Origin: Bordetella parapertussis
GTDB taxonomy: Bacteria > Pseudomonadota > Gammaproteobacteria > Burkholderiales > Burkholderiaceae_E
DNA: 33,681 nucleotides
Reading direction: 5' to 3'
Assembly (NCBI GenBank): GCA_945872335.1
Contig: CAMBZS010000012.1
Span: 1-33,681, forward strand
This document shows, one piece after another, positions 237 to 14,709 of the stretch (position 1 is its first letter; each line of letters starts with the position of its first letter). The notes below the pieces were generated by a model. It made no database searches. It saw only the letters and a list, made by a program, of their open reading frames with translations, and had not been told where the DNA came from. A program made the position numbers and the translations under genes.

Positions 237-1418
237 ATGACCCCAGCCGAACTTCCCCTCGAAGGCATCACGGTCGTCTCGCTCGAACAGGCCATCGCCG
301 CGCCGTTCTGCACCCGCCAGCTCGCCGACCTCGGTGCCCGCGTCATCAAGATCGAACGGCCCGATGGCGGTGATTTCGCCCGCGGCTACGACAGCCGGGT
401 CAAGGGATTGAGTTCGCACTTCGTCTGGACCAACCGATCGAAGGAAAGTCTGACGCTTGACCTCAAGCAACCGGCCGGACTCGACGCGCTGAAGCGTCTC
501 ATCGGTCGCGCCGACGTCCTGGTGCAAAACCTCGCCCCGGGCGCCGCCGCAAGAATGGGGCTGGACCATCACACCCTCGCGCCAAGTTACCCGGCACTGA
601 TCGTCTGCGACATCTCGGGCTACGGGTCCGACGGCCCCTATCGCGACCGCAAAGCCTACGATCTGCTGGTGCAAAGCGAGTCGGGTTTTCTGTCGATCAC
701 CGGCAGCCCCGACGACATGGCCAAGGCGGGCTGTTCCATCGTGGACATCTCCGCAGGCATGTATGCCTACAGTGCGATTCTGGCTGCGCTCCTGAAACGC
801 GGGCGGACCGGTCGCGGCTGCCGCATCGACATTTCAATGCTCGAATCGATGGCCGAGTGGATGGGCTTCCCGCTCTACTACGGGTTTGACGGCGCACCGC
901 CCCCGCCGCGCGCCGGGGCCATGCATGCCTCGATCTGCCCCTATGGTCCGTTTGCCTGCGGCGATGGCCGTACGGTGATGCTGGGCATCCAGAACGAGCG
1001 CGAATGGCAATCGTTCTGCGAGCAGGTGCTTGGCCAGGCTGATCTTGCCACCGACCCCCGCTTTGACAGCAACTCCCGGCGACTGGCCGCACGCGACGAG
1101 GTCCACCGCCTGATCAACGCCCGGTTCTCGTCAATGACCGCCGAGCAGGTGATCGCGCTGCTCGACACCGCGCGGATTGCCTTCGGCGAAGTCAATACGA
1201 TCGCGGGCCTGTGGGCGCACCCACAGCTTGCCGCCCGCGGTCGCTGGCAATCGGTGCAGACCGAACACGGCCCGGTCCCTGCGCTGCTGCCGCCGGGGCA
1301 AACCGCCGCCCGCTTCGACCCCGTACCCCAGTTGGGGGCGCACAGCCGAGCGATCCTGGCCGAACTCGGCTATGACGGGGCAGAGGTCAGTGCGCTGAAA
1401 GCGGCGGGCGTGATCTGA
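237..1418 (+). CDS. CaiB/BaiF family (class III) CoA-transferase
   Basis: The 393-residue product has the usual length for class III CoA-transferases, which move CoA between carboxylic acids via an enzyme-bound aspartyl-CoA thioester. The N-terminal part carries the typical PLEGITVVSLEQ..AAPF..R.LADLGA.VIKIE pattern and later TLDLK and ISGYG.DGPY motifs. By alignment from memory to formyl-CoA transferase, the catalytic Asp is D170 in IVDISAGMYAY. The ATG at 237 is chosen because family homology starts within the first ten residues. The donor and acceptor acids cannot be read from the sequence; members act on carnitine, oxalate, succinate, mesaconate and others. It converges on ackA, 24 bases away, so a shared role is possible but unproven. 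Confidence 0.9.
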   Translation: MTPAELPLEGITVVSLEQAIAAPFCTRQLADLGARVIKIERPDGGDFARGYDSRVKGLSSHFVWTNRSKESLTLDLKQPAGLDALKRLIGRADVLVQNLAPGAAARMGLDHHTLAPSYPALIVCDISGYGSDGPYRDRKAYDLLVQSESGFLSITGSPDDMAKAGCSIVDISAGMYAYSAILAALLKRGRTGRGCRIDISMLESMAEWMGFPLYYGFDGAPPPPRAGAMHASICPYGPFACGDGRTVMLGIQNEREWQSFCEQVLGQADLATDPRFDSNSRRLAARDEVHRLINARFSSMTAEQVIALLDTARIAFGEVNTIAGLWAHPQLAARGRWQSVQTEHGPVPALLPPGQTAARFDPVPQLGAHSRAILAELGYDGAEVSALKAAGVI

Positions 1419-1442
1419 CCCCACGCAAGGCGACGCCCGTAT

Positions 1443-2681
1443 TCAACCCTGGCGTGCGAGATGTTCGAGGCAGGCACTCACGATCACCGACTCCTCATCG
1501 GTTGGCATCACGCGCACGGCCACGCGCGCTGAAGGATCGCTGACAAGCGCGGCGCCCGACTCGTTGAACGTACGATCAAGCCGTACTCCCATCCAGGCCA
1601 GCCGGTCGGCAATGCGGGCGCGGACCGGCGGACTGTTCTCGCCAATTCCGGCGGTAAAGACCAGCAGATCACAGCCCCCCAGCGCCGCCGCCGTGGCAGC
1701 GATTTCCTGCGCGGCACGCTCGCAGAAGACCTCGATCGCAAACGCTGCTCGTGGGTCCGTGCTCGCGAGCAGCGTGCGCACATCATGGCTGATGCCGGAG
1801 AGCCCCAGGAGGCCGCTCCGGTCATAGAGGGCGTGCGACAGCGTGTCGGCATCCATGCCAAGCGCCGTGATGGCATGCAGTGCCACCCCGATATCGACGC
1901 TGCCGGGCCGGGTTCCCATCACCAGGCCGTCAAGGGCCGTCATGCCCATCGAACTGCGAACCGAGCGGCGCTCGAGCATGCCGCAAACGCTTGCGCCGTT
2001 GCCGAGATGGGCCACGATCACCCTCCCGTCGGCGAGCGGTCCGGCCACCGCCGGGAGCTGGTCCGCAATGAACTGGTAGGACAGGCCGTGGAATCCGTAG
2101 CGTCGCACGCCACGCTCGCGCATCTCGATCGGGAGCGCGTAGGTGGTGTGAAGCGGCGACTGGCTCGCATGAAACGCGGTATCAAAACAGCCGATCTGGG
2201 GCAGATCGGGCTGCCGCGCCGCGAGCGCACGCACCCCAGCGAGGTTGTGCGGCTGATGCAGCGGCGCAAGCGGCACCTGCGCCTCAAGCGCGGCAATTGC
2301 TGCATTGTCGAGCAGCGCCGGCCGCTCGAAATGCCCACCGCCGTGAACGATCCGATGACCCGCCACCTTGAGGGTGCCTCGCAGGCCCGCCGAGCGTTCA
2401 AGCGCCTCCATCAGATGATCGATTGCGTCCTGATGGCTTTGCACCGAGGGCAGCAAGCTGGTGACAACCGGATCGTGCGCCACCCGCCATTCGAGGTGGG
2501 CAGCGCCGGGCCTGCCGCCCAGTCCGGCGACCTGGCCGCGAATTCGCGCAGTCGCTGCCTCCGATGCGCCTGCACCGGACGCAGCCAGCGCGACCGCCCG
2601 CAACCGATCGGCCGCGTAGACCGCGAACTTGACGCTCGATGATCCGCAGTTGAGGACCAGAATCGAGTCGTCAGTGCGCAT
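1443..2681 (-). CDS. ackA: Acetate/propionate kinase
   Basis: This 412-residue protein interconverts acetate (or propionate) plus ATP with the acyl phosphate plus ADP. The ASKHA-type kinase motifs are intact: LNCGSSSVKF near residue 10 (with the Asn/Ser residues for phosphate), HRIVHGGG, CFDTAFH with the catalytic Asp, YGFHGLS, HLGNGASVC, GTRPGSVDIG, GIGENS and the C-terminal PTDEE. It starts with ATG two bases after the TAG of the IclR-type gene, so the two are surely co-transcribed and probably translationally coupled. No phosphotransacetylase gene is in the window, although ackA is often next to pta. The IclR partner suggests substrate-responsive control rather than constitutive overflow metabolism. 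Confidence 0.92.
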   Translation of the reverse strand: MRTDDSILVLNCGSSSVKFAVYAADRLRAVALAASGAGASEAATARIRGQVAGLGGRPGAAHLEWRVAHDPVVTSLLPSVQSHQDAIDHLMEALERSAGLRGTLKVAGHRIVHGGGHFERPALLDNAAIAALEAQVPLAPLHQPHNLAGVRALAARQPDLPQIGCFDTAFHASQSPLHTTYALPIEMRERGVRRYGFHGLSYQFIADQLPAVAGPLADGRVIVAHLGNGASVCGMLERRSVRSSMGMTALDGLVMGTRPGSVDIGVALHAITALGMDADTLSHALYDRSGLLGLSGISHDVRTLLASTDPRAAFAIEVFCERAAQEIAATAAALGGCDLLVFTAGIGENSPPVRARIADRLAWMGVRLDRTFNESGAALVSDPSARVAVRVMPTDEESVIVSACLEHLARQG

Positions 2682-2683
2682 GT

Positions 2684-3472
2684 CTACCAGTCGACTGTCT
2701 GCGCCATTTCTTCGGCCGCCGCACGCATGGCAGGAATGAACTCCATCGCGTCGGCAAGACCCAGGCGCGAGGCTGGAAGATGCATGGCAAGGGCAGCCAC
2801 CACGCGACCATCCACATCGAGTACCGGTACGGCCAGGCAGCTGACCCCGGCCAGATATTCCTCGGAATCGGTGGCGTAACCCTGCTGCCGCACCCGATCG
2901 AGTTCCTCGGACAGCCTCGACGGATCAACCATGGTGCGCTGCGTGTGACGGACCAGCGGACTCTGGCGAATGAAGCGGTCACGCGCCCGGCGGTTCATGT
3001 AACCCAGAAACAGCTTGCCACTGGCCGAGGCATAGAGGGGCTCGATCGAACCCGCACCCAGACTCAGCTTGAGCGGCCAGCCGGTTTCGATGCGGTCGAG
3101 GTACATCACCGCATTGCCGTTCGGAATGGTGAGATTGCAGGTTTCCCCGACTGTCTCGACCAGTTCCTCAAGGATTGCATGGCGTGCCGCCCGACCGGGA
3201 GAGCTGAGCAGCACCTGACCGGCCAGCCGGTTCAGCCGCTCGCCACCCTGGTAGCGCTTGCTGCCGGGCTCTCGGCCCACCAACCCGGCGAATTCGAGCG
3301 TGCTCAGGATTCGGAAGACCGTTGGCTTGGGCAGATCGACCTGCTTGCACAGCTCCGCCAACTGGGGCGGCGTCTGGCTGCAGGCAATCGCCTCGATGAT
3401 CTTGAACGCACGCAGAACCGCAGACCCCGAAGGGACTGCATCATCTTCGATAGGCAAAACCTGACTGGACAT
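2684..3472 (-). CDS. IclR family transcriptional regulator
   Basis: With the ATG at 3472 the product is 262 residues, the usual IclR length. A winged helix-turn-helix covers roughly residues 15-80 (SAVLRAFKIIEAIA, then LPKPTVFRILSTLE as the recognition region). The C-terminal effector domain contains the typical SGKLFLGY, TDSEEYLAGVSCLAVPV and VVAALAMHLPASR patterns. The ATG at 3472 is preferred over an in-frame start at 3520 because a strong GGGAGGAG sits five bases upstream. It is the first gene of a two-gene unit with ackA. IclR proteins commonly repress their own operon until a small organic acid binds, so ackA is the natural target. The effector is unknown. Confidence 0.9.
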   Translation of the reverse strand: MSSQVLPIEDDAVPSGSAVLRAFKIIEAIACSQTPPQLAELCKQVDLPKPTVFRILSTLEFAGLVGREPGSKRYQGGERLNRLAGQVLLSSPGRAARHAILEELVETVGETCNLTIPNGNAVMYLDRIETGWPLKLSLGAGSIEPLYASASGKLFLGYMNRRARDRFIRQSPLVRHTQRTMVDPSRLSEELDRVRQQGYATDSEEYLAGVSCLAVPVLDVDGRVVAALAMHLPASRLGLADAMEFIPAMRAAAEEMAQTVDW

Positions 3473-3477
3473 GTTGA

Positions 3478-3485
3478 CTCCTCCC
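3478..3485 (-). promoter_or_regulatory. Ribosome binding site of the IclR-type gene
   Basis: On the minus strand this reads GGGAGGAG and lies five bases before the ATG at 3472. It is one of the clearest Shine-Dalgarno sequences in the window and is the reason for choosing that start over the upstream in-frame codon. Confidence 0.8.
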
Positions 3486-3554
3486 TGGTGAGCGCCATGA
3501 GCCGCTGCGCCAGGCACCATTCAGGCAGGGCCTGCTGGTGCTTCTTGGGGCGCT

Positions 3555-3700: not shown

Positions 3701-4408
3701 TCAGGCGATGCGTCGGCGCTGTGCCTGATGCAGCGTGTGCAGCGTGATGCTGCGCACCTCGGCCTTGCTCTGCTCGATGTGAGCGCGAAGCAGCATCTTC
3801 GCCTGATCGGCCTTGCGCTGCAGCACTGCCCGCAGAATCCGCGCGTGCTCCTGGTAGGTGGCATCGATGCGGTCGTCGCGGGTGAAGTCGAGCCTGCGCA
3901 CGATCCGTATCCGTCCGGTCACATCATCATGAACCCGGGCGATTTCGTCGTTGCCCGCCGCCTTCACAAGCGCCGAGTGAAAGCGCTCATCGAGCTCACC
4001 CACTGCGGGTCCGTCGCGAAGGCGCTCGCCTGAAGGCAGCAGCCAGGCCTGGCGAAGCGGCGCGAGCAGCTGCTCGGGCGCCTCGGCCTGGGAGAGCCGG
4101 GTCACTGCATCGAGTTCAAGCAGCACCCGCAGATCGTAGAGTTGATCGATCCGATCAAAGTCGATCGGGCGCACGAACCAGCCTGTTTTCGATTCGACCT
4201 CGACCAGCCCCTCATCACGCAGCCGGGTCAGCGCCTCGCGGATGGGCGTTCGGCTCACCCCCATCTGTTCGGCCAATGCCGCCTCGGAGAGGCGCTGGCC
4301 CGGGGTGAAGAGAAACTTATGCAGATCGGTCTTGAGCCGTTGATAGACCTGTTCCGAGAGCTTGTCGCGCGAGCGGGCAGCCGAGTCGGTGGAAGCGAGC
4401 TGAATCAT
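3701..4408 (-). CDS. GntR family transcriptional regulator, FCD subfamily
   Basis: The 235-residue product has an N-terminal winged helix-turn-helix (about residues 15-80, with LSEAALAEQMGVSRTPIREA as the recognition region). An all-helical FCD effector domain follows, with the acidic/histidine residues that usually hold a metal: Asp/Arg in the LYDLR segment, then DERFH, YQEHARI and RAHIEQS. The ATG at 4408 is chosen because it overlaps the upstream ATPase stop codon in an ATGA junction; an in-frame extension to 4516 lies inside that gene and lacks homology. It is the last gene of the allophanate hydrolase/ABC transporter operon and most likely regulates it, probably through the palindrome at 11888-11897. 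FCD regulators typically respond to small carboxylates; the ligand here is unknown. Confidence 0.9.
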   Translation of the reverse strand: MIQLASTDSAARSRDKLSEQVYQRLKTDLHKFLFTPGQRLSEAALAEQMGVSRTPIREALTRLRDEGLVEVESKTGWFVRPIDFDRIDQLYDLRVLLELDAVTRLSQAEAPEQLLAPLRQAWLLPSGERLRDGPAVGELDERFHSALVKAAGNDEIARVHDDVTGRIRIVRRLDFTRDDRIDATYQEHARILRAVLQRKADQAKMLLRAHIEQSKAEVRSITLHTLHQAQRRRIA

Positions 4409-5382
4409 TCCGACGAGGATACCCGATTCGCTGCGAGCAGGCAGGCGGCCGCGCGAACGCCGACGCTGACGAGCCTGGGCTTTTCGCGACCACAGCGGTC
4501 CTGCCCATCGGGGCAACGACCGTGAAAGCGACAGGCCGAGGCGGGAGGATCCACCGGACTGCGCGCTTCACCCTGCAGACGGATTCGCGGTCCCTGCCCG
4601 GGAATCGATGAGATCAGCGCGCGCGTGTAGGGGTGTAAGGGCGCGCGAAATACCTCGTCGGACGGCCCGACCTCGACGATTTCACCGAGATACATCACCG
4701 CCACCCGCTCAGTGAGCAGCCGCACCACATTCAGATCGTGCGACACGAAGATCATCGACAGGCCGAGCTCCCGGCGCAGGCGCTCAAGGAGTTGCAGCAC
4801 CACCGCCTGCACCGACACATCGAGCGCTGCAGTCGGCTCGTCCAGAATCAGCAGGTCGGGCCGCACCGCCAGCGCGCGGGCAATACCGACCCTGGCCTTC
4901 TGCCCGCCCGACAATTGATGGGGAAAGCGCGCAAGCAACTCCGCCGGCAACCCGACCTGTGTCGCGAGTTCGGCAACGCGCGCCCGCAGCGCTCCCCGTC
5001 CCAGCGACGCGAGGAGCTTGAGCGGCTCGGCGATTGCCTCCTCGGCAGTGAAGCGGGGGTTGAGGCTGTCGGTCGGGTCCTGGAACACCATCTGGATGCG
5101 GGCACGCTCGGGGCTGCGCGCAAAACGCGCCGCGGGCAGCGCGCCGATATCGGCGCCGTCAAACACGATGCGACCGTCGGTGGGATCGTGGAGGCGCGCA
5201 AGCAGACGTGCGAGCGTGGATTTGCCGCAGCCCGATTCCCCGACCAGTCCCACGCTCTCGCCGCGACGGATCTCGAGCGACACATCATCGACCGCATGAA
5301 GCATCGAGCCCCGGCCACCCGCCACCGGGAAATATTTTTTCAGCCGCTCAACACGCAGCAGCCGGTCAGGCAAGTCGCTCAT
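4405..5382 (-). CDS. Dipeptide/oligopeptide-type ABC transporter ATP-binding protein (DppF-like)
   Basis: This 325-residue cytoplasmic ATPase has Walker A GESGCGKST (about 48-56), a Q-loop at Q101 in VFQDPTDSLNPR, the signature LSGGQ (157-161), Walker B LLILDEP (177-183) and an H-loop in VSHDLNVV. The C-terminal oligopeptide-transporter extension follows, with the HPYTRALISSIP segment and several cysteines. It is the second of two non-identical ATPases of one importer. Its ATG directly follows the TGA of the partner ATPase, and its own TGA overlaps the GntR start, so expression is tightly coupled. The substrate cannot be inferred from the ATPase. Confidence 0.92.
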   Translation of the reverse strand: MSDLPDRLLRVERLKKYFPVAGGRGSMLHAVDDVSLEIRRGESVGLVGESGCGKSTLARLLARLHDPTDGRIVFDGADIGALPAARFARSPERARIQMVFQDPTDSLNPRFTAEEAIAEPLKLLASLGRGALRARVAELATQVGLPAELLARFPHQLSGGQKARVGIARALAVRPDLLILDEPTAALDVSVQAVVLQLLERLRRELGLSMIFVSHDLNVVRLLTERVAVMYLGEIVEVGPSDEVFRAPLHPYTRALISSIPGQGPRIRLQGEARSPVDPPASACRFHGRCPDGQDRCGREKPRLVSVGVRAAACLLAANRVSSSE

Positions 5383-6453
5383 TCAGCCCTCCCGCCCGGC
5401 AAGCACCGGATCAGAACCGGCAGCGTCCGCCGCATCCGGATACCAACATGCCACCCGATGCGATGCCTCGCGCGCCTGCGACTCACCCAGAAGCGGACGG
5501 ATCCGCCGGCACCGCTCGTCGGCCCGATCGCAACGTTCGGCAAACCGACAGGCGGGCAGGTCGGTTCGCCGCAGGTCGGGCAGATTGCCAGGCACCGGCG
5601 CGAGTGACGCAATCGAGCCCGCGGGCCCCGGGGTGGAACTGATCAGCCGGCGCGTGTAGGGGTGACGCGGGGCGGCGAACAGCGATCCGGTGACCGCATC
5701 CTCGACCGCCTGCCCTGCGTGCATCACCACGATGCGGTCACAATAATCGGCGGCAAGCGCGAGGTCGTGGGTGATGAAAAGGGTCGCCATCTGCCGTTCG
5801 CGCGCGAGTCCGGTGATGAGGTCCATGACCGCGGCCTGGGTCGTCACATCCAGCCCAGTGGTCGGTTCATCGGCAATCAGGAGCGCCGGGCGACAGGCCA
5901 GTGCCAGCGCGATCATCACCCGCTGGCACATGCCCCCCGAGAGTTCGAACGGATAAGCGTTCAGACGCCGCTCGGGGTCGGGAATCGCCACCTCGCGAAG
6001 TGCCTGAATCGCCCCCTCCCGCAGGCCGCGCGACAGGTCTGAACCGCGGGCAAGCGCGTGCCGGCGCAGCACGTCTTCAATCTGGCGCCCCACCCTTCGG
6101 ATCGGATTGAGCGCCGTGCGCGGACTCTGAAACACCATTGAGATCTCGCGGCCGCGAAGTTCGGCGAGCACCCGGGCATCGGCACGCAACAGGTCGATGC
6201 CGCCAAAGCTTGCTTCGCCCCCGGTGATCCGCGCGGCGCGATCGCTGATCCCAAGGAGGGCATAACTCAACACCGACTTCCCCGAGCCGCTCTCACCCAC
6301 CAGTCCGACGATTTCCCCTTTCCTGATCTGCAGGTTCACGCCTTCGAGCGCCTGCACCGCGCCGTCTCGGGTTCGGAATTCGAGGTTGAGGTCGCGGACC
6401 TCGAGAAGCGGCGGATTGGGTACGCTCCCGCGCGCCGGCGGCGGGGCGGTCAT
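5383..6453 (-). CDS. Dipeptide/oligopeptide-type ABC transporter ATP-binding protein (DppD-like)
   Basis: This 356-residue ATPase has Walker A GESGSGKS (53-60), Q-loop Q109 in MVFQSPRTALNP, signature LSGGM (171-175), Walker B LLIADEP (191-197) and H229 in ITHDLALAADY. The C-terminal oligopeptide-transporter domain contains the HPYTRRLISSTPG segment and cysteines in CRFAERC, DERC and VACW, the pattern that binds an iron-sulphur cluster in some DppD proteins. It pairs with the DppF-like protein downstream to power the two permeases. Its ATG overlaps the upstream permease stop in an ATGA junction. Confidence 0.92.
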   Translation of the reverse strand: MTAPPPARGSVPNPPLLEVRDLNLEFRTRDGAVQALEGVNLQIRKGEIVGLVGESGSGKSVLSYALLGISDRAARITGGEASFGGIDLLRADARVLAELRGREISMVFQSPRTALNPIRRVGRQIEDVLRRHALARGSDLSRGLREGAIQALREVAIPDPERRLNAYPFELSGGMCQRVMIALALACRPALLIADEPTTGLDVTTQAAVMDLITGLARERQMATLFITHDLALAADYCDRIVVMHAGQAVEDAVTGSLFAAPRHPYTRRLISSTPGPAGSIASLAPVPGNLPDLRRTDLPACRFAERCDRADERCRRIRPLLGESQAREASHRVACWYPDAADAAGSDPVLAGREG

Positions 6454-7304
6454 GTGCGCCTCCGGGGATCGAGCAGATCGCGCAGTGCATCACCCAGCAG
6501 ATTGAAGGTGAACACTGCAAGCATCAGTGCCGCACCGGGAAAGAGGCTCACCCACCACTCGCCCGACACGATGTACTGCGCACCTTCTGCAACCAGAATG
6601 CCCCACTCGGCCTCGGGCGGGCGCACGCCCAGTCCGATGAAGCTGAGTCCCGCTGCATTGAGAATCGCCCAGCCCATATTGAGGCTCACCTGAACCGCAG
6701 CCGCTGGCAGCGCGTTCGGCAAGAGGTGCACCACCAGGATGCGCAGGTCACGATTGCCGGATAGCCGCGCCGCTTCAATCCAGCCCGCACCCCGGCGGAC
6801 ATTGGCCTCGGCGCGCGCCACCCGGATATAGAACGGCAAATTGATCACTGCTGTGGCGAGCACAATATTGCCTACCGTGTTGCCAAGCGCCGCCACAATG
6901 CCCATTGCGAGCACAAAGAGCGGAAACGCCATGATGGTGTCCGAGAACCGCGTGACCAGACGATCCCACCAGCCGCCGAAATAGCCCGCTGCAAGACCCA
7001 GCGGCAAACCCATCACAAACGACGCCGCCACCGCAGCGAGCGCAATGCCCAGGTCGAGACGGGTGGCCACAATCACCCGGGACAGCATGTCGCGACCCAG
7101 CGCATCGGTGCCGAACCAGTGCTGCGCCGAGGGCGGCTGAAGCGCAGCCGCCGCGTTGCTCGCGAGCGGGTCATAGGGCACGATCGCGGGACCGGCAATG
7201 GCAAGCACCACGAGCAGCGCAAAGAGGAGCGCCGCAAGCAGCGTCACCGGATTCTCGGTGAGCACATGCCGCGCATGGGCCACCCCTGAGCGCGGCGCGC
7301 TCAT
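6450..7304 (-). CDS. ABC transporter permease, DppC-like
   Basis: The 284-residue inner-membrane protein has an N-terminal hydrophobic segment (about 18-42) followed by the periplasmic VPYDP and HWFGTDALGRDMLSRV motifs typical of DppC/OppC. Several transmembrane helices and the cytoplasmic coupling loop follow (WIEAARLSGN.RDLRI). The C-terminus has SFIGLGVRPPEAEWG and LFPGAALMLAVFTFNLLGD...LLDPR, also diagnostic of the family. It forms the channel with the DppB-like permease, whose stop codon it overlaps by four bases. Confidence 0.93.
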   Translation of the reverse strand: MSAPRSGVAHARHVLTENPVTLLAALLFALLVVLAIAGPAIVPYDPLASNAAAALQPPSAQHWFGTDALGRDMLSRVIVATRLDLGIALAAVAASFVMGLPLGLAAGYFGGWWDRLVTRFSDTIMAFPLFVLAMGIVAALGNTVGNIVLATAVINLPFYIRVARAEANVRRGAGWIEAARLSGNRDLRILVVHLLPNALPAAAVQVSLNMGWAILNAAGLSFIGLGVRPPEAEWGILVAEGAQYIVSGEWWVSLFPGAALMLAVFTFNLLGDALRDLLDPRRRT

Positions 7305-8314
7305 GCGTCGACGCTCACGCGCGGATCGACCACGAGATAGAGAAGATCGACCAGCAGATTGACGAACACGAACAACACGCCCATGGTGAGCACGAAGCCC
7401 TGCACCGGGGCGTAGTCGCTTGCCGTGAGCGCATCAATTGCGTAGCTGCCAATGCCGGGCCAGCCGAACACCTTTTCAACAATCACGCTGCCGCCCAGCA
7501 TGAAGCCGAACACCATGCCGAGCGTGGTGATCACAGGCAGGAGCGCGTTACGCAACGCGTAGGCAAACAGCACAGTGATGGGCGTGAGCCCGGAGGCGCG
7601 CGCGGTGCGGATGAAATCGGATCCGAGCACACCCAGCATCGACGCCCGGGTCATGCGCGCAATCGGCGCCAGCACGAAAATCGCCATGGTGGCCACGGGT
7701 AACGAAAGCTGCTTCATCGCCGCCCACCAAACCGCACCCTCGCGAGCAATCAGCGAATCGATCAGCAGAAAGCCGGTCACCGTGGGGGGTGCGGAAAACA
7801 TCGGGTCGAGGCGTCCCATCGGCGAAGGCGCCCAACCAAGCAGGTAGTAGAAGAAGTAGGCAAGGAGCAGCCCGGTGAAGAAGGTGGGCAGCGACACGCC
7901 AGCGGTCGTGATTACCCGGCAGACCTGATCAATCCAGCTGCCTTGTCTAACCGCGGCAAGCACGCCCAAAGGCACTGCGATCGCACAGGCCACCACGAGC
8001 GCGACCAGCACGATCTCGAGCGAAGCGGGCAACCTCTGCGCGATTTCCGTGAGCACCGGCTGCCCTGTCGTGAGTGACAGACCGAGCTCACCGCGCCCCA
8101 GATCGCCGAGGTAGCGCAGGAACTGCTCGGCCAGCGAACGGTCGAGCCCGAGTTGCCGCCGCACCTGCTCGATCGCCTCGGCGGTCGCCGCGCCCCCGGC
8201 AAAATAGGCTGCCGGATCCCCCGGCAGGGCGCGGGTGAGAATGAAGGTGATCACCACGACGCCGAACAGACTCGGCACCGCGGCGATCAGGCGCCTGGCA
8301 ATCAGCCGAAACAT
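7301..8314 (-). CDS. ABC transporter permease, DppB-like
   Basis: The 337-residue inner-membrane protein starts with the typical RRLIAAVPSLFGVVVITFIL helix and RALPGDPA loop of DppB/OppB. It contains about six transmembrane helices, the coupling loop (MTRASMLGVLGSDFIRTARA) and the C-terminal VEKVFGWPGIGSYAIDA and LLYLVVDPRV motifs. It lies 35 bases after the substrate-binding protein and overlaps the DppC-like permease. The order binding protein-DppB-DppC-DppD-DppF is the classic one, so the importer looks complete. Confidence 0.93.
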   Translation of the reverse strand: MFRLIARRLIAAVPSLFGVVVITFILTRALPGDPAAYFAGGAATAEAIEQVRRQLGLDRSLAEQFLRYLGDLGRGELGLSLTTGQPVLTEIAQRLPASLEIVLVALVVACAIAVPLGVLAAVRQGSWIDQVCRVITTAGVSLPTFFTGLLLAYFFYYLLGWAPSPMGRLDPMFSAPPTVTGFLLIDSLIAREGAVWWAAMKQLSLPVATMAIFVLAPIARMTRASMLGVLGSDFIRTARASGLTPITVLFAYALRNALLPVITTLGMVFGFMLGGSVIVEKVFGWPGIGSYAIDALTASDYAPVQGFVLTMGVLFVFVNLLVDLLYLVVDPRVSVDA

Positions 8315-8349: not shown

Positions 8350-9960
8350 TCAGCCCTTCGACAGTTGCCGGTAATCGGGCTGCAGATGGAACCAGTACAT
8401 GTAGCCCTGCACATCACGCCGCATCGCGACATCCATGGTGGGCTGCAGGAGCGGTACCCGCGGCACCTCATCGTAGGCGATCTGGATCATGTCCTTGACC
8501 GCGCCTTCGTAGACCGAGCGCTCGCTCGCGAATTGCGCGGTCGTGATCAGCTTGTCGAGCGCAGGGTTCTTGTAGCTCATTGTGTTGAACACCGCGTCCT
8601 GGCTGTGATAGCACCAGAAGAAGAAATATTCCGGGTAATCGAGCCAGCCGCCGAAGCGGTTGACAATCATTGGCATGTCCTTTTTGAGAAGCGCCGCACG
8701 CCATGTGGCGCCCGGGATCTTGTTGATCTGCGCCTTGATCCCGATCGAGGCGAGCGATTCCTGAATCAGCACCGTCATCGGCTCGCCGATGGTCGCCCCG
8801 CCAAGATCGAAACTGATCGTGGTTTCGAAGCCGTTCGCGTAACCTGCCTCGGCGAGCAGCGCACGCGCCTTGGCAACATCGGTTGAATAACCCGTGGCTT
8901 GCGGCCACGCAATGCTGGACACCTTGGACGAGCCGCCGTAGAGCTTGGCCGCGCGCTTGTAAATGGCGTTGTCGAACAGCTTGTCGTAGGGCAGCACCCA
9001 GGCCACGGCCTGGCGGACCTTGGGGTTGTTGAACGGCGGTTTAGTGACGTTCATCCCAAGATAGAACATCGAGTTTTCGATCGGCATCGAGGTGACCTTC
9101 ACAGCCGAGGTTTCCGATGAGAGCTCGGAGAAATCCTTGGGCGGCAGGTCGTAGGTGATCTCGATATCGCCCTTCACGAGAAGCGCTCGCCGGTTGCCGG
9201 CATTGGGCACGTCACGTTGCACGATCCGACGCAGTTTGGGCATCGGGCCACAGGTCCAGTTGTCGTTTCGAACGTAGATGATCTCCTGGCCAGGCTTCCA
9301 GGATTCAACCCGGTAGGCACCGCCCCCTGCGGTGTTGTTGCGTGTCCAGTTGAGCCCCCAGGGGTCTTGCGCCGTGACATGCTTCTTGACCAGTTCGCTG
9401 TTGAAGATCGAAGGCACCGGCACCGCGAGATCGGGCATGGAGAGCTTGTCCTTCTGCAGGAACTTCACCCGAAAGGTCAGGTCATCGACCACCTCGAACT
9501 GCTCGGGCTTGGAGAGCGAGCCTGCTGCCATCTGGAAGGTGGGAAAGCCTCCCACGCTCACCGCGCGGTCAAAACTCCATTTCACATCTCTGGCGGTGAC
9601 CGGCGTGCCATCGTGAAAGCGCGCGTTCGCGCGCAGCTTGAAGGTGACCGACATGCCATCAGCGGCCATCTGCCAGCTTTCGGCGAGCTCGGGCTCGAGC
9701 TTGTCGCGGTCATAGACCACCCGACCGTCGGGCAATGTCTTCCGACCATAGGTCATCAGCCGGTCATAGCAGATCCAGCTCACGCCATACGCCGGGCGGT
9801 TGGCGCCTACGGTATGGATATCGAGCGAATTGGGCCCGAATTCATTGGCGACGACCAGTACGTCGGCCGGACGTGACTGGGCCTGAGCGGCCAGCGGAAG
9901 CCCGCTGCCCAAGGCCATTGATCCTGCGGCGGTCTGCGAAATAAATTGCCTGCGGTCCAT
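8350..9960 (-). CDS. ABC transporter substrate-binding protein, family 5 (peptide/nickel/opine type)
   Basis: The 536-residue periplasmic protein begins with MDRRQFISQTAAGSMALGSG, a twin-arginine-like signal peptide, and is probably cleaved after the AQAQ near residue 28. The mature part has family 5 landmarks: LEPELAESWQMAADGMSVTFKLR, FHDGTPVTARDVKWSFDRA, GAYRVESWKPGQ, NNPKVRQAVAW and A.ALLAEAGY. It captures the substrate for the permeases encoded downstream. Family 5 proteins bind peptides, opines, nickel chelates, glutathione and other compounds, so the ligand is open. Its position 33 bases after allophanate hydrolase suggests a nitrogen-rich amide or ureido compound, but this is inference. 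GGAG lies eight bases before the ATG. Confidence 0.92.
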   Translation of the reverse strand: MDRRQFISQTAAGSMALGSGLPLAAQAQSRPADVLVVANEFGPNSLDIHTVGANRPAYGVSWICYDRLMTYGRKTLPDGRVVYDRDKLEPELAESWQMAADGMSVTFKLRANARFHDGTPVTARDVKWSFDRAVSVGGFPTFQMAAGSLSKPEQFEVVDDLTFRVKFLQKDKLSMPDLAVPVPSIFNSELVKKHVTAQDPWGLNWTRNNTAGGGAYRVESWKPGQEIIYVRNDNWTCGPMPKLRRIVQRDVPNAGNRRALLVKGDIEITYDLPPKDFSELSSETSAVKVTSMPIENSMFYLGMNVTKPPFNNPKVRQAVAWVLPYDKLFDNAIYKRAAKLYGGSSKVSSIAWPQATGYSTDVAKARALLAEAGYANGFETTISFDLGGATIGEPMTVLIQESLASIGIKAQINKIPGATWRAALLKKDMPMIVNRFGGWLDYPEYFFFWCYHSQDAVFNTMSYKNPALDKLITTAQFASERSVYEGAVKDMIQIAYDEVPRVPLLQPTMDVAMRRDVQGYMYWFHLQPDYRQLSKG

Positions 9961-9993: not shown

Positions 9994-11859
9994 TCAGGAA
10001 ACTCGAGCGGTCTGCGCAAGACCGGGCGAGGGGTTGGGGGCAGGCAGAGCGGCGCTGCGCGAGGCCAGGTAGCCGCGCCAGCCACCGAAGGCGGATATGT
10101 CCTGCGCACCGTGAAGGCCGGCGGCCTCGCAGAGAAACCCATGCACGCGCTCGCCGCTCGCAAGCTCGACCGTGCCCAGCCCCAGGGGTGAAGGAATCAG
10201 CGCAAGAAAGCTTCCGACCTCGGTCACGGGCACATTCCAGACCTCGACTTCCAGCGCAACACCGCTTTCGTCGACCCGGACCATGCCGGGCCGCGCAGGC
10301 GCTGCACCCGCGAGCGCATAAAGCCGGTAGCGGGGAGCGGTATGGGTTCGTTCACGAAGCACGGCGCGCCGCTCGGTCAGCTGCCGGTTGAGCGGCAGAC
10401 CGGACATGTGCGCGCCCACTGCAGCGATCGGCATGGTCGCCTCGACTGCGGGGCCGGGGTGGGGCGGGGACTCACTGGTTGCACGCTGCGTGAAGGATGC
10501 CTCCCACGTGCGGGCCCAGTGCGCGAGCGCTGCATCATCGTTGGCGCGTGCAATAAAGGTGACGCCGAACGGCAGGCCGGTGGCGCTCAGCCCGGCCGGG
10601 ACGGCAAGCGCGCACCAGCCGAGCAGGTTCACGAAATTGGTGAACTGACCCAGTTCGGCGTTGACGCCGATCGGGTCAGCAGCCAGCGCCGCGTGACTGG
10701 GATGGCGAGGGGCAGTAGGCACCATGAGGATGTCGGCATCGGCCCACAGTGCGTTGAGCGCCTGGCGTGCACGCTGCAACTGGTACTGCGCCTGGAAAGT
10801 TGCCACAGCGTCAAACTGGCGGGCCCGCCCGATCACGGCCGCCACGGTGGGATCCATTGCCTCGGGCTGCGACTCGATCAGCGTGCGCACCACCGAGTAG
10901 CGCTCGGCCACCCAGGGCCCCTCATAGAGCAGTCGTGCCACCTGATAAAGCGGTTCGAGATCGATCGGGGTCACCGAGTCAGCCAGGGGGGTGATGGTGT
11001 CGAGCGCGCGCGTCCAGCCCGCGCCGTATCCGTCATGCGCAAGCGCCAGACCCTCCGGCACGAGCACCCGCGGCTTGATGCCTGCAAACCGCGCCCGCCC
11101 AGGTATGAAGGCGGAATATTCATCGGCCGTGTCGGCCCCCTCGATCACGGCAAGCACCGAGGCTGCATCGTCCACGGTATGCGCAAAGATCGACACGCAA
11201 TCGAGCGTGCGACAAGCGGGCAAGACACCGGCTGTGCTGACCCGCCCCGGCGTAGGCTTCAAGCCCACCAGACCATTGAAGCCCGCCGGAATCCGCCCCG
11301 AACCCGCCGTGTCGGTTCCAAGTGCAAACAGCACCTCACCGCGCGCCACCGCCACCGCCGAGCCTGAACTCGATCCACCGCTTATATGCGGCGGGCTGCA
11401 TACGCTGGAGGGCGCGCCAAACGGTGACCGCGCCCCCACGAGGCCGGTAGCGAACTGGTCAAGGTTGGTCTTGCCAAACAGCACCGCACCGGCATCGAGC
11501 AGCTTTTGCACCACGGTGGCGCTTTGTTCCGGAGTCCTCGCGAAAGTCGGACAGGCTGCAGTGGTCGGCATACCGGCGGCGTCGATGTTGTCCTTGACCG
11601 CAAAGGGCATACCGAAAAGCGGGTAGGTGGCGATCAGTGCCGCGCGGTCGGCGGACTGTCTCGACAGCGCATCCAGCGTGTCGATCCGCTCGGCGAGCGC
11701 GGGCAAATCAACCAAGTGAATCCAGGCCGCAGGCGCCCGATCAGCAGCGAGCCGGGCATGACGCGTGCGGAGCAGTGCGCCGACGTCGGCACCTGCGAGC
11801 AGCGCGGCCCGCCAGGCACGCAAATCGGTCAATCGGAGTTCATCAACGGCGAGAGGCAT
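9994..11859 (-). CDS. atzF: Allophanate hydrolase (AtzF/DUR1,2 hydrolase type)
   Basis: The 621-residue enzyme of the amidase-signature family is predicted to hydrolyse allophanate (urea-1-carboxylate) to ammonia and carbon dioxide. The Lys-cisSer-Ser triad is readable as K89 (FGMPFAVKDNID), S163 (HISGGSSSGS) and S187 (GTDTAGSGRIPA), with the expected spacing of 24 between the serines. From about residue 490 the C-terminal domain matches the allophanate hydrolase-specific region (RTHTAPRYRLYALAG, EVEVWNVP, FLALIPSPLGLG, GFLCEAAGL, AQDISAFGGWRGYLA). This separates it from generic amidases. The ATG at 11859 gives the family N-terminus; the frame extends further upstream only as antisense to leuS. 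It is the first gene of the ABC transporter/GntR operon. No urea carboxylase, biuret hydrolase or cyanurate gene is in the window. Confidence 0.9.
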   Translation of the reverse strand: MPLAVDELRLTDLRAWRAALLAGADVGALLRTRHARLAADRAPAAWIHLVDLPALAERIDTLDALSRQSADRAALIATYPLFGMPFAVKDNIDAAGMPTTAACPTFARTPEQSATVVQKLLDAGAVLFGKTNLDQFATGLVGARSPFGAPSSVCSPPHISGGSSSGSAVAVARGEVLFALGTDTAGSGRIPAGFNGLVGLKPTPGRVSTAGVLPACRTLDCVSIFAHTVDDAASVLAVIEGADTADEYSAFIPGRARFAGIKPRVLVPEGLALAHDGYGAGWTRALDTITPLADSVTPIDLEPLYQVARLLYEGPWVAERYSVVRTLIESQPEAMDPTVAAVIGRARQFDAVATFQAQYQLQRARQALNALWADADILMVPTAPRHPSHAALAADPIGVNAELGQFTNFVNLLGWCALAVPAGLSATGLPFGVTFIARANDDAALAHWARTWEASFTQRATSESPPHPGPAVEATMPIAAVGAHMSGLPLNRQLTERRAVLRERTHTAPRYRLYALAGAAPARPGMVRVDESGVALEVEVWNVPVTEVGSFLALIPSPLGLGTVELASGERVHGFLCEAAGLHGAQDISAFGGWRGYLASRSAALPAPNPSPGLAQTARVS

Positions 11860-11887
11860 GGAGTTCGAACCAGAGTGGTGCACAAAG

Positions 11888-11897
11888 TTGTATACAA
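11888..11897. promoter_or_regulatory. Perfect palindrome TTGTATACAA, candidate GntR/FCD operator
   Basis: This 10-bp perfect palindrome lies 28 bases before the allophanate hydrolase start codon in the 183-bp divergent gap with leuS. Short palindromes centred on GTATAC are typical operators of FCD-type GntR regulators, and such a regulator is the last gene of the operon. I noticed no other copy in the window. TATACA within it could also serve as a weak -10 element, which would suit repression by occlusion. Confidence 0.55.
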
Positions 11898-12042
11898 GCT
11901 TGGACGCATGCAGAACTCGTGCCAGCCGAACCCGGCGACGGGGCAGTCGGCCATTGCGTGCCGGCCCCGCGCCCGGACGCTCCGGGCCATCCGACAGCGA
12001 ACCCGCTAAACTCGAGGGTTTCCCAGAGCCCGGTTCCCAGTC

Positions 12043-14709
12043 ATGCAAGAGAAGTACGACGCAGGCGCGATCGAGCGCGCCGCCCAACAGCACTGGCAGT
12101 CGATCGACGCCTATCGTGCGATCGAACACGACCCCCGCTTCCCCAAGGGCAAGTTCTACGCATGCTCCATGCTGCCCTACCCGTCGGGCAAGCTTCACAT
12201 GGGCCATGTGCGCAACTACACCATCAACGACGTGATGTACCGGCACCTGCGCATGCAGGGCTGGAACGTGCTCATGCCCATGGGTTGGGATGCCTTCGGC
12301 CTGCCGGCCGAAAACGCTGCGATGAAGAACAACGTAGCGCCAGCGAAATGGACCTGGGACAACATCGCTTACATGAAGAAGCAGATGCTGGCGATGGGTC
12401 TGGCAATTGACTGGAGCCGCGAGGTCGCCACCTGCTCGCCCGATTACTACCGCTGGAATCAGTGGCTGTTCCTCAAGATGCTCGAACACGGCATCGCTTA
12501 CCTGAAGAACGGAATCGTCAACTGGGATCCGGTCGACCAGACCGTGCTCGCCAACGAGCAGGTGATCGATGGCCGCGGATGGCGCTCGGGCGCGGTGGTG
12601 GAAAAGCGCGAGATCCCGATGTACTACCTGGGAATCACCCGCTACGCCGATGAACTGCTCTCCGATCTGTCAGGCCTGGGCTGGCCAGAGCGGGTCAAGG
12701 TGATGCAGGAAAACTGGATCAGCCGCTCGACCGGCGTTCGGTTTGCATTCCCGCACGACATCCGCGATGCCGCAGGCCAACTGGTGGGCGATGGCAGTCT
12801 CTATGTGTTCACGACGCGCGCCGACACCATCATGGGTGTCACCTTTGTGGCGGTCGCCCCGGAACATCCGCTCGCTACGGTCGCCGCGGCACGCAGTCCC
12901 GATATCGCCGCATTCATTGATGCCTGCAAGCAGGGGGGTGTCACCGAGGCCGAGCTTGCCACCCGCGACAAGGATGGCGTTCCCACTGGACTCTCCGTCA
13001 CCCACCCGCTGACCGGCGAGCCGATCGAGGTGTGGGTCGGCAACTATGTGCTCTACAGCTATGGCGATGGCGCAGTCATGGGTGTGCCGGCGCACGATGA
13101 GCGCGACTTCGCGTTCGCCCGTAAATTCGGTCTGCCGATTCGGCAGGTCATTGGAATCGACGGCGAGGATTTTCACCAGGATACCTGGCAGCCCTGGTAC
13201 GAAGACAAGCAGCGAGGACACTGTGTGCAGTCCGGCCGCTACGACGGGCTGGCCTTTGAAGCCGCGATCGAGGCTATCGCCGGTGATCTGGCGGCAAAGG
13301 GCCTGGGCGAAAAGCGCATCCAGTACCGGCTGCGCGACTGGGGCATTTCGCGCCAGCGTTACTGGGGTACGCCGATCCCCATCATCCACTGCGACGACTG
13401 CGGTGCGGTACCCGTGCCCTATGAACAGTTGCCCGTGGTGCTGCCCGAAGATCTGGTGCCCGATGGCAGCGGCAACCCGCTTGCCAAGAACGAAGCGTTC
13501 CTGCGCTGCGCGTGTCCGAAATGCAGCAAGCCCGCGCGCCGCGAAACCGACACCATGGACACCTTCATCGATTCATCCTGGTACTACATGCGCTACTGCT
13601 CGCCTGACAACGATCAGGCAATGGTCGACGCGCGCAACGACTACTGGATGCCGATGGATCAATACATCGGCGGAATCGAGCATGCAGTGCTGCACCTTCT
13701 CTACGCGCGCTTCTGGACCAAGGTGATGCGGGACATCACCGGCGACTTTCCCGGCGACGCGGCGCGCGGACTGGTGAAATTCGACGAACCCTTCTCGAAT
13801 CTTCTCTGCCAGGGCATGGTGCTCAACCATATCTATTTCAGGAAAGCCGCGAAGGGTGGCATCGAATACTTTTGGCCGGATGACGTGGAAAACGTCCACG
13901 ATGCGCGCGGCCAGGTCACCGGCGCACGCCTCAAGTCCGATGGCAGCGCCATCGAGTACGGCGGCGTGGGCACAATGAGCAAGAGCAAGAACAACGGGGT
14001 CGATCCGCAATCGCTCATCGACCAATATGGCGCCGATACCGCGCGTCTGTTCGTCATGTTTGCGTCGCCCCCAGAGCAAACGCTCGAGTGGTCTGGCACT
14101 GGCGTCGAGGGCGCGCATCGGTTCCTGCGTCGGCTCTGGAACGCTGCCCACAACCGTCACGCCGCCGTGGCGCGCGCCGAAGGCGCAATCCCGGCTGCGC
14201 TCGACGATGCCCAGCGGGCGCTGCGCAGGGAGATTCACGCGATTCTCAGGCAGGCCGACTACGATTACCAGCGCAAGCAGTACAACACGGTGGTGTCGGC
14301 CGCCATGAAGATGCTGAACGCGATTGAAGGCGCAAAGCTCGCCGACTCGCCAGCCAGCGACGCGGTGCTTGCCGAGTCCCTGTCCATCCTGATCCGGGCT
14401 CTTTATCCCGTGGTGCCGCACATCACCCACGCACTGTGGGTCGAGCTGGGCTTTGCAGCGCGTCACGGTGACCTGCTCGACGCAGGTTGGCCCACGGTCG
14501 ACGAGTCGGCCCTGCAACAGGACCGCATCGAGCTTGTGCTGCAGATCAACGGCAAGGTGCGGGGCAGCGTGTCGGTTGACGCCACGGCCGATCGGACCGC
14601 CATCGAAGCCGCTGCCCTGGCAAGCGACATTTTCCTGCGCCATGCCGAGGGCCGCACCGCAAAGAAAGTGATTGTGGTGCCGGGCCGGCTGGTCAACGTG
14701 GTGATCTGA
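12043..14709 (+). CDS. leuS: Leucyl-tRNA synthetase
   Basis: The 888-residue class I synthetase charges tRNA-Leu with leucine. The HIGH-type motif is HMGH (52-55) within [16 protein letters not shown], preceded by the usual EKYDA...E...Q.HW N-terminus. The inserted editing domain (about residues 225-420) includes [21 protein letters not shown] and the acidic DERDF segment. CDDCG...CPKC in the middle is a zinc-binding-like cysteine set, and [13 protein letters not shown] is typical of bacterial LeuRS. The KMSKS loop reads TMSKSKNNG at about 644-652, so the first Lys is Thr. Length and start agree with the family. It is divergent from the allophanate hydrolase operon and leads a cluster with lptE, holA and proA. 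Confidence 0.98.

What the first reader, a model, noticed from the sequence alone, without database searches (positions are those of the whole stretch)
11888..11897. Perfect TTGTATACAA palindrome placed to control the allophanate hydrolase operon
A 10-bp perfect palindrome stands 28 bases before the first gene of an operon that ends with an FCD-type GntR regulator. Operators centred on GTATAC are described for FCD proteins, for example in Agrobacterium Atu1419. It also lies in the shared upstream region of leuS, so it might influence an essential synthetase gene.
Basis: partly seen in the sequence, partly recalled or inferred. Interest (0 to 1): 0.5.

Follow-up and report, generated by a model that had tools for sequence, protein, structure and literature searches.

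The report
Conserved repressor site at nitrogen-starvation promoter
A short mirror-image DNA word in front of a nitrogen-scavenging gene cluster is very probably the docking site of the cluster's own GntR-type regulator, and it sits at the start point of a promoter of the kind used under nitrogen starvation, an arrangement repeated in many related bacteria.

Summary
TTGTATACAA is at 11888-11897, 28 bases before the allophanate hydrolase gene (atzF); it is the only exact copy in the 3.88-Mb genome. The operon ends in an FCD-type GntR gene coupled to the last ABC ATPase gene (ATGA). The operator idea holds up: of 18 family genomes with atzF, the GntR orthologue and an assembled operon head, 17 have a GTATAC-like core there. 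(1) On the operon strand a sigma54-type -24/-12 element (TGGCACGAGTTCTGC, 11910-11924) lies just upstream, so the site would cover about +2 to +11. The composite occurs in 12 of 74 family genomes, once each (reversed control 0), and at 34 places in 399 order-level genomes (control 3); 19 of the 31 places outside the family head related operons. (2) The 10-mer is the core of a conserved ~30-bp dyad (11878-11907). Best reading: the regulator represses a sigma54, probably NtrC-activated, promoter at its start site until an inducer, perhaps allophanate, appears. Control of leuS is not supported. Nothing was tested for binding. The parts are known kinds; ten searches of an open-access library showed no report of this pairing.

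The parts
11888..11897 (.). Core palindrome TTGTATACAA, the proposed GntR contact core
11878..11907 (.). Proposed full operator, ~30-bp dyad; 5 of the 6 conserved flank positions present
11910..11924 (-). Sigma54-type -24/-12 element TGGCACGAGTTCTGC
   Evidence: same element in orthologous operons
11898..11898 (-). Predicted transcription start (+1), counted from the -12 element; not mapped
11866..11882 (-). NtrC-like sequence TGCACCACTCTGGTTCG (10 of 12 by direct count), downstream of the start; tentative
   Evidence: coordinates; relatives
9994..11859 (-). atzF, allophanate hydrolase
8350..9960 (-). Family 5 solute-binding protein
7301..8314 (-). ABC permease (DppB/OppB type)
6450..7304 (-). 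ABC permease (DppC/OppC type)
5383..6453 (-). ABC ATPase (DppD/OppD type)
4405..5382 (-). ABC ATPase (DppF/OppF type)
3701..4408 (-). gntR, FCD-type regulator, start overlapping the ATPase stop

Best explanation
The palindrome is the core of a ~30-bp operator for the FCD-type GntR protein encoded at the end of the same operon. It lies across the predicted start of a sigma54-dependent promoter (-24/-12 element at 11910-11924). Most likely working: under nitrogen limitation an enhancer-binding protein, probably NtrC, can open the sigma54 promoter, but the GntR dimer at about +2 to +11 blocks opening or escape until an intracellular inducer, perhaps allophanate or a related ureido-carboxylate, releases it. 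The operon thus needs two signals, nitrogen hunger and substrate, and the regulator limits its own synthesis. Shown by sequence comparison: the site, its conservation together with this GntR group, the sigma54-type element, the operon. Inferred: binding, repression, start site, NtrC, inducer.
For: Core and sigma54-type element together in 17 of 18 assessable family genomes with atzF and the GntR group. Composite pattern in 12 of 74 family genomes, once each, reversed control 0; 34 places in 399 order genomes, control 3; 19 of 31 places outside the family head operons with this GntR (15) or with atzF or the same transporter (4). Among AtzF loci of genome contigs, 4 of 4 assessable with the GntR group have the module, 1 of 39 without it. 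Flank positions outside the search pattern conserved. rpoN and ntrC present. DNA-contact type residues E42, R53, T54, R57 and FCD residues D140, H144, H188, H210 invariant in 30 orthologues. No sigma70-type promoter by consensus in 11750-12150.
Against: No binding or transcript data. The window's -12 reads CTGC, not TTGC. G001 lacks the module at atzF. G050 has the module but no GntR orthologue was found. GntR homologues of 47-48% at L141 and L142 have no core. On plasmids the sigma54 element is seen in 5 of 10 loci and one locus (L239) has neither. 12 of 31 order-level places head no recognised operon of this kind. No good upstream NtrC site in the window's genus: 8 of 12 in L118 and L121. 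In B. cenocepacia an ntrC mutant grew better on biuret (PMC5491218, passage). The 39 loci without GntR are mostly distant taxa, not a matched control.
Confidence: 0.75

Rival explanations
1. The GntR protein binds here, but at an ordinary sigma70 promoter as at Atu1419 targets; the TGGC/CTGC pair is coincidence.
For: Atu1419 palindromes overlap -10 boxes (PMC7797058, passages). The core contains TATAC. Half of 10 plasmid loci show the core without a sigma54 element by the pattern used.
Against: No sigma70-type site by consensus in 11750-12150. The sigma54-type element goes with the core in 17 of 18 family genomes and is kept without the core in G042 and G064.
Confidence: 0.12
2. The FCD protein acts as an activator, or as a repressor and activator in turn, rather than as a simple block.
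For: Some GntR proteins have double roles (recalled, no call). Spacing from the -12 element falls mainly on 9, 12-13 and 19 bases.
Against: The core always lies downstream of the -12 box, from about -4 to +23 in 39 modules, a place that favours blocking; spacing is not fixed.
Confidence: 0.08
3. The palindrome is a chance word without function.
For: Perfect 10-bp palindromes are common here, 78 against 67 in shuffles.
Against: Word and position conserved across genera and families.
Confidence: 0.02
4. The site serves leuS, or both genes.
For: It lies in the shared upstream region, 145 bases before leuS.
Against: leuS is adjacent only in genus g1 among 114 loci searched; the module reads towards atzF.
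Confidence: 0.03

Closest known systems
Atu1419 (VanR group of FCD GntR proteins), Agrobacterium fabrum; PMC7797058, passages seen
   Same: FCD GntR fold (Foldseek hit), GTATAC-centred 10-bp palindrome, operator overlapping a promoter, repression of catabolic genes.
   Different: 21-23% identical by Foldseek; its operators overlap predicted -10 boxes, not a sigma54 element; no long dyad in the passages seen; another pathway.
HutC with NtrC/CbrB at Pseudomonas hut genes; PMC8871633, passages seen
   Same: A local GntR repressor (family as listed in PMC5343134) combined with NtrC activation of a nitrogen-source operon.
   Different: HutC has another effector domain (recalled, no call), another pathway and operator; it is a working analogue, not a family member.
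RNA-Seq NtrC/sigma54 control of urea carboxylase genes in Burkholderia cenocepacia (PMC5491218, passages) and predicted NtrC control of atzF in Rhizobiales (PMC5343134, passages)
   Same: Same pathway end and the same global control.
   Different: No local GntR repressor or operator at these genes in the passages seen; the ntrC mutant grew better on biuret.
HpxS, GntR regulator of allantoin genes in Klebsiella (recalled; the search gave no paper on it)
   Same: GntR regulator of a ureide nitrogen operon under nitrogen control.
   Different: Recalled as acting at a sigma70-type promoter with NAC.

Membership tests
FCD-type GntR regulators | N-terminal GntR winged helix and C-terminal FCD domain | tested here: met
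   PF00392 78.8 bits and PF07729 73.1 bits, over cut-off; fold
FCD-type GntR regulators | DNA-contact residues as in Atu1419 (Glu34, Arg45, Thr46, Arg49, Gly66) | tested here: met
   E42, R53, T54, R57 invariant, G76 nearly so, in 30 orthologues; matched to Atu1419 by motif by eye
FCD-type GntR regulators | Asp/His metal site | tested here: met
   D140, H144, H188, H210 invariant; equivalence to the metal ligands is recalled
FCD operators | Palindrome with G at position 3 and C at position 8 of the 10-mer | tested here: met
   TTGTATACAA; invariant columns in 39 modules
FCD operators | Bound by its regulator | not testable with these tools
   needs gel shift or footprint
Sigma54 promoters | GG and GC pairs 10 bases apart in a TGGCAC-N5-TTGC context | tested here: met
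   TGGCACGAGTTCTGC, one base off TTGC; consensus recalled
Sigma54 promoters | rpoN and an enhancer-binding protein in the genome | tested here: met
   PF04552 214 bits; ntrC 628.7 bits over cut-off
Sigma54 promoters | Enhancer site | tested here: inconclusive
   NtrC-like upstream site in 16 of 39 modules, not in the window's genus
Sigma54 promoters | Transcription lost without rpoN | not testable with these tools
   needs a mutant and start mapping

The most novel reading that the evidence does not exclude
An unnamed group of FCD regulators, found with allophanate, biuret-type, urea-carboxylase and oxamate gene clusters, senses a carbamoyl- or ureido-carboxylate such as allophanate through its FCD metal site. 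It gates sigma54 promoters by sitting downstream of the -12 box, so that an activator-ready closed complex stays poised until inducer arrives, and it uses a ~30-bp operator, larger than the 10-bp site described for Atu1419.
Probability: 0.35. Interest if true: 0.6.

Novelty: new variant of a known kind. Interest (0 to 1): 0.45.

Why it matters
It proposes a concrete two-input control (nitrogen hunger plus substrate) for operons that take nitrogen from allophanate, urea or biuret, names their probable operator and regulator across Burkholderiales and on some plasmids, and offers a simple system for asking whether a local repressor can hold a loaded sigma54 polymerase in check.

Tried and rejected
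Chance: rejected by conservation. leuS as a general target: rejected. Sigma70 promoter: none by consensus in 11750-12150. Further targets in the genome: the four other NTNGTATACNAN places score 0, 0, 0 and 3 of 6 at the flank positions, so I do not count them. The genome's AtzE gene is on another contig (C80), with no core of 8 or more of 10 in the 14,000 bases read; no urea carboxylase passes its cut-off. What supplies allophanate here stays open. Covariation of the dyad arms: the summed pairing exceeds permutations (174 against 156, p 0.013), but the two best-conserved pairs (-15/+14 and -10/+9) do not covary. Downstream NtrC-like scores were not tested against shuffles.

Counting choices: the 39 modules are 20 found through proteins and 19 of the 31 order-level pattern hits outside the family. 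Left out were the 12 hits without operon evidence (L196, L200, L203, L206, L207, L215, L216, L217, L220, L221, L223, L224; some have weaker amidase or ATPase hits) and loci without a module, such as L134. L137 had only 30 bases of upstream sequence. The stricter rule (8 of 10) drops L137, which one search shows with TGTATAC. G013 was not assessed. An early note of mine gave 36 places; the listing shows 34.

Literature: ten searches. None listed a paper about this regulator or about an FCD operator at a sigma54 promoter. Two papers name a GntR gene near allophanate hydrolase in gene lists only, in the passages seen (PMC6368324; PMC12625717). The library is open-access only, so absence is weak evidence.

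Full report
Observation. TTGTATACAA stands at 11888-11897, 28 bases before the atzF start and 145 before leuS. Perfect 10-bp palindromes are common here (78 in the window, 67 on average in 300 shuffles), so the palindrome alone means little; the exact word is rare (0 in the 300 shuffles; one copy in the 3,880,516-base, 91% complete genome).

Operon. On the minus strand lie allophanate hydrolase, a family 5 solute-binding protein, two permeases, two ATPases and a GntR/FCD regulator. The regulator's ATG overlaps the ATPase stop as ATGA, which argues for one transcript and for autoregulation.

Orthologues. Searching 74 genomes of the family with AtzF and with the GntR protein gave a clear GntR group, 47% identical or more in nearly all cases (in G047 the gene is in two frames, pieces of 64 and 44%), in most cases beside atzF. 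Eighteen genomes have both genes and an assembled operon head: G000, G038, G039, G009, G044, G029, G046, G012, G030, G001, G045, G003, G057, G002, G047 and, with the two genes on separate contigs, G048, G054 and G023. Seventeen have a core related to TTGTATACAA after a TGGC-type element: GTATAC exactly in 11, one base different within GTATAC in 6. The exception is G001: no module at atzF, but CTTGTATACAG elsewhere on the contig, directly after a weak GG-N10-GC. G037 is cut inside atzF.

Sigma54-type element. In those 17 the core follows TGGC-N7-(T/C)TGC (GTGC in G009). In the window it is TGGCACGAGTTCTGC at 11910-11924, predicted start 11898, so the 10-mer covers +2 to +11. Over 39 modules the 7-mer TGTATAC or its variant starts 8 to 25 bases after the -12 box: always downstream, not at a fixed spacing. 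The genome has rpoN and ntrC.

Pattern specificity. TGGCAYNNNNNYTGC-N4-26-TGTATAC is found in 12 of 74 family genomes, one place each, and never reversed. Eleven places head atzF operons (in front of the solute-binding gene in G057); the twelfth (G029:C29) heads another locus with a GntR orthologue. In 399 genomes of the order there are 34 places in 31 genomes, against 3 for the reversed pattern. Of the 31 places outside the family, 15 have a GntR orthologue (46-58%) downstream; 4 more (L204, L212, L218, L222) have atzF or the same transporter but no GntR in the stretch seen; 12 show neither, at most weaker amidase or ATPase hits.

With and without the regulator. Among genome-contig loci found by AtzF, 4 of 4 assessable with the GntR group carry the module and 1 of 39 without it does (L064, Rhizobium); the latter are mostly distant taxa. 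Within the family, 0 of 4 loci without GntR (G005, G010, G064, G042) carry it. G042 keeps the operon order and TGGCACGCTTCCTGC but shows no core, and its genome's best GntR hit is weak (E 3.1e-14); this looks like joint loss, though the contig ends near the promoter. Against this, G050 has the module and no GntR orthologue found, and GntR homologues at L141 and L142 (47-48%) have no core.

Larger operator. Centred on the core, the 39 modules favour G at -15 (weighted frequency 0.88), C at -10 (0.80), C at -6 (0.85), G at +5 (0.66), G at +9 (0.74) and C at +14 (0.83). These positions were not in the search pattern. In the 25 modules with spacing 10 or more, where the G of the -12 box does not fall on -15, positions -15, -10, +9 and +14 are kept in 22, 22, 19 and 21. 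The window has 5 of the 6. Two Enterobacterales plasmid copies (L231, L237) show the dyad plainly, with GAATTC arms. The best-conserved flank pairs do not covary, and in the window alone a 30-mer this symmetrical is not exceptional (77 of 33,651); the claim rests on conservation.

Regulator. The model is confident (pLDDT 93) and of FCD fold; Foldseek hits include Atu1419, PmiR and TM0439. E42, R53, T54, R57 and D140, H144, H188, H210 are invariant in 30 aligned sequences; by motif the first four match Atu1419 contact residues. On ten plasmid stretches the relatives sit with atzF-uca-urtABCDE, with atzF, cysteine hydrolase and BMP-type transporter genes, with atzF and a nitrate/sulfonate-type transporter or beside oxamate amidohydrolase; three stretches carry no annotation. 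A core is seen in 9 of the 10 and the sigma54 element in 5. The shared chemistry, carbamoyl carboxylates, is why I suggest allophanate or a relative as inducer; this is inference.

Activator. NtrC-like sites with 10 or more of 12 matches lie upstream in 16 of 39 modules, each reached by at most 4.5% of 200 shuffles, five of them in one genus. In the window and close relatives the best match is downstream, starting at about +17 (11866-11882). NtrC is likely but not settled. NtrC-dependent urea carboxylase genes are reported for Burkholderia cenocepacia, although its ntrC mutant grew better on biuret (PMC5491218, passages).

Comparison. It works like HutC at hut genes (PMC8871633, passages), and its core is like that of Atu1419 (PMC7797058, passages). 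Ten literature searches of an open-access library showed no report of an FCD operator at a sigma54 start site, of this long dyad, or of a regulator of these allophanate operons. I rate it a new variant of a known kind.

Noticed in passing
L231, L233, L234, L237 (plasmid records): Relatives of this GntR with allophanate hydrolase, urea carboxylase or biuret-type clusters lie on Enterobacterales plasmids; 89 plasmid records match at E 1e-30 or better, Salmonella 24 and Klebsiella 18 among them.
   Followed up: partly
L124, L133, L148: A second, oppositely facing module (TGGCAAG-N4-CTTGC and CTTGTACACAAG) lies near the atzF module, reading away from atzF; the gene it faces was not identified.
   Followed up: no
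L139 (G047): The gntR gene is split into two frames in this assembly, while its module is kept.
   Followed up: no
window 237-3520: Downstream of gntR an IclR-type regulator, an acetate/propionate kinase-like gene and a divergent CaiB-like CoA-transferase are kept in order within genus g1.
   Followed up: no
L205, L239: One branch of the GntR group lies beside gamma-glutamyltranspeptidase-type or oxamate amidohydrolase genes, with (L205) or without (L239) the core.
   Followed up: partly
L143 (G042), L146 (G064): AtzF operons that keep the sigma54-type element but lack the core and a GntR orthologue.
   Followed up: partly
L064: A Rhizobium atzF locus without this GntR has TGGCATGATGGTTGC closely followed by TTGCATACAA.
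   Followed up: no
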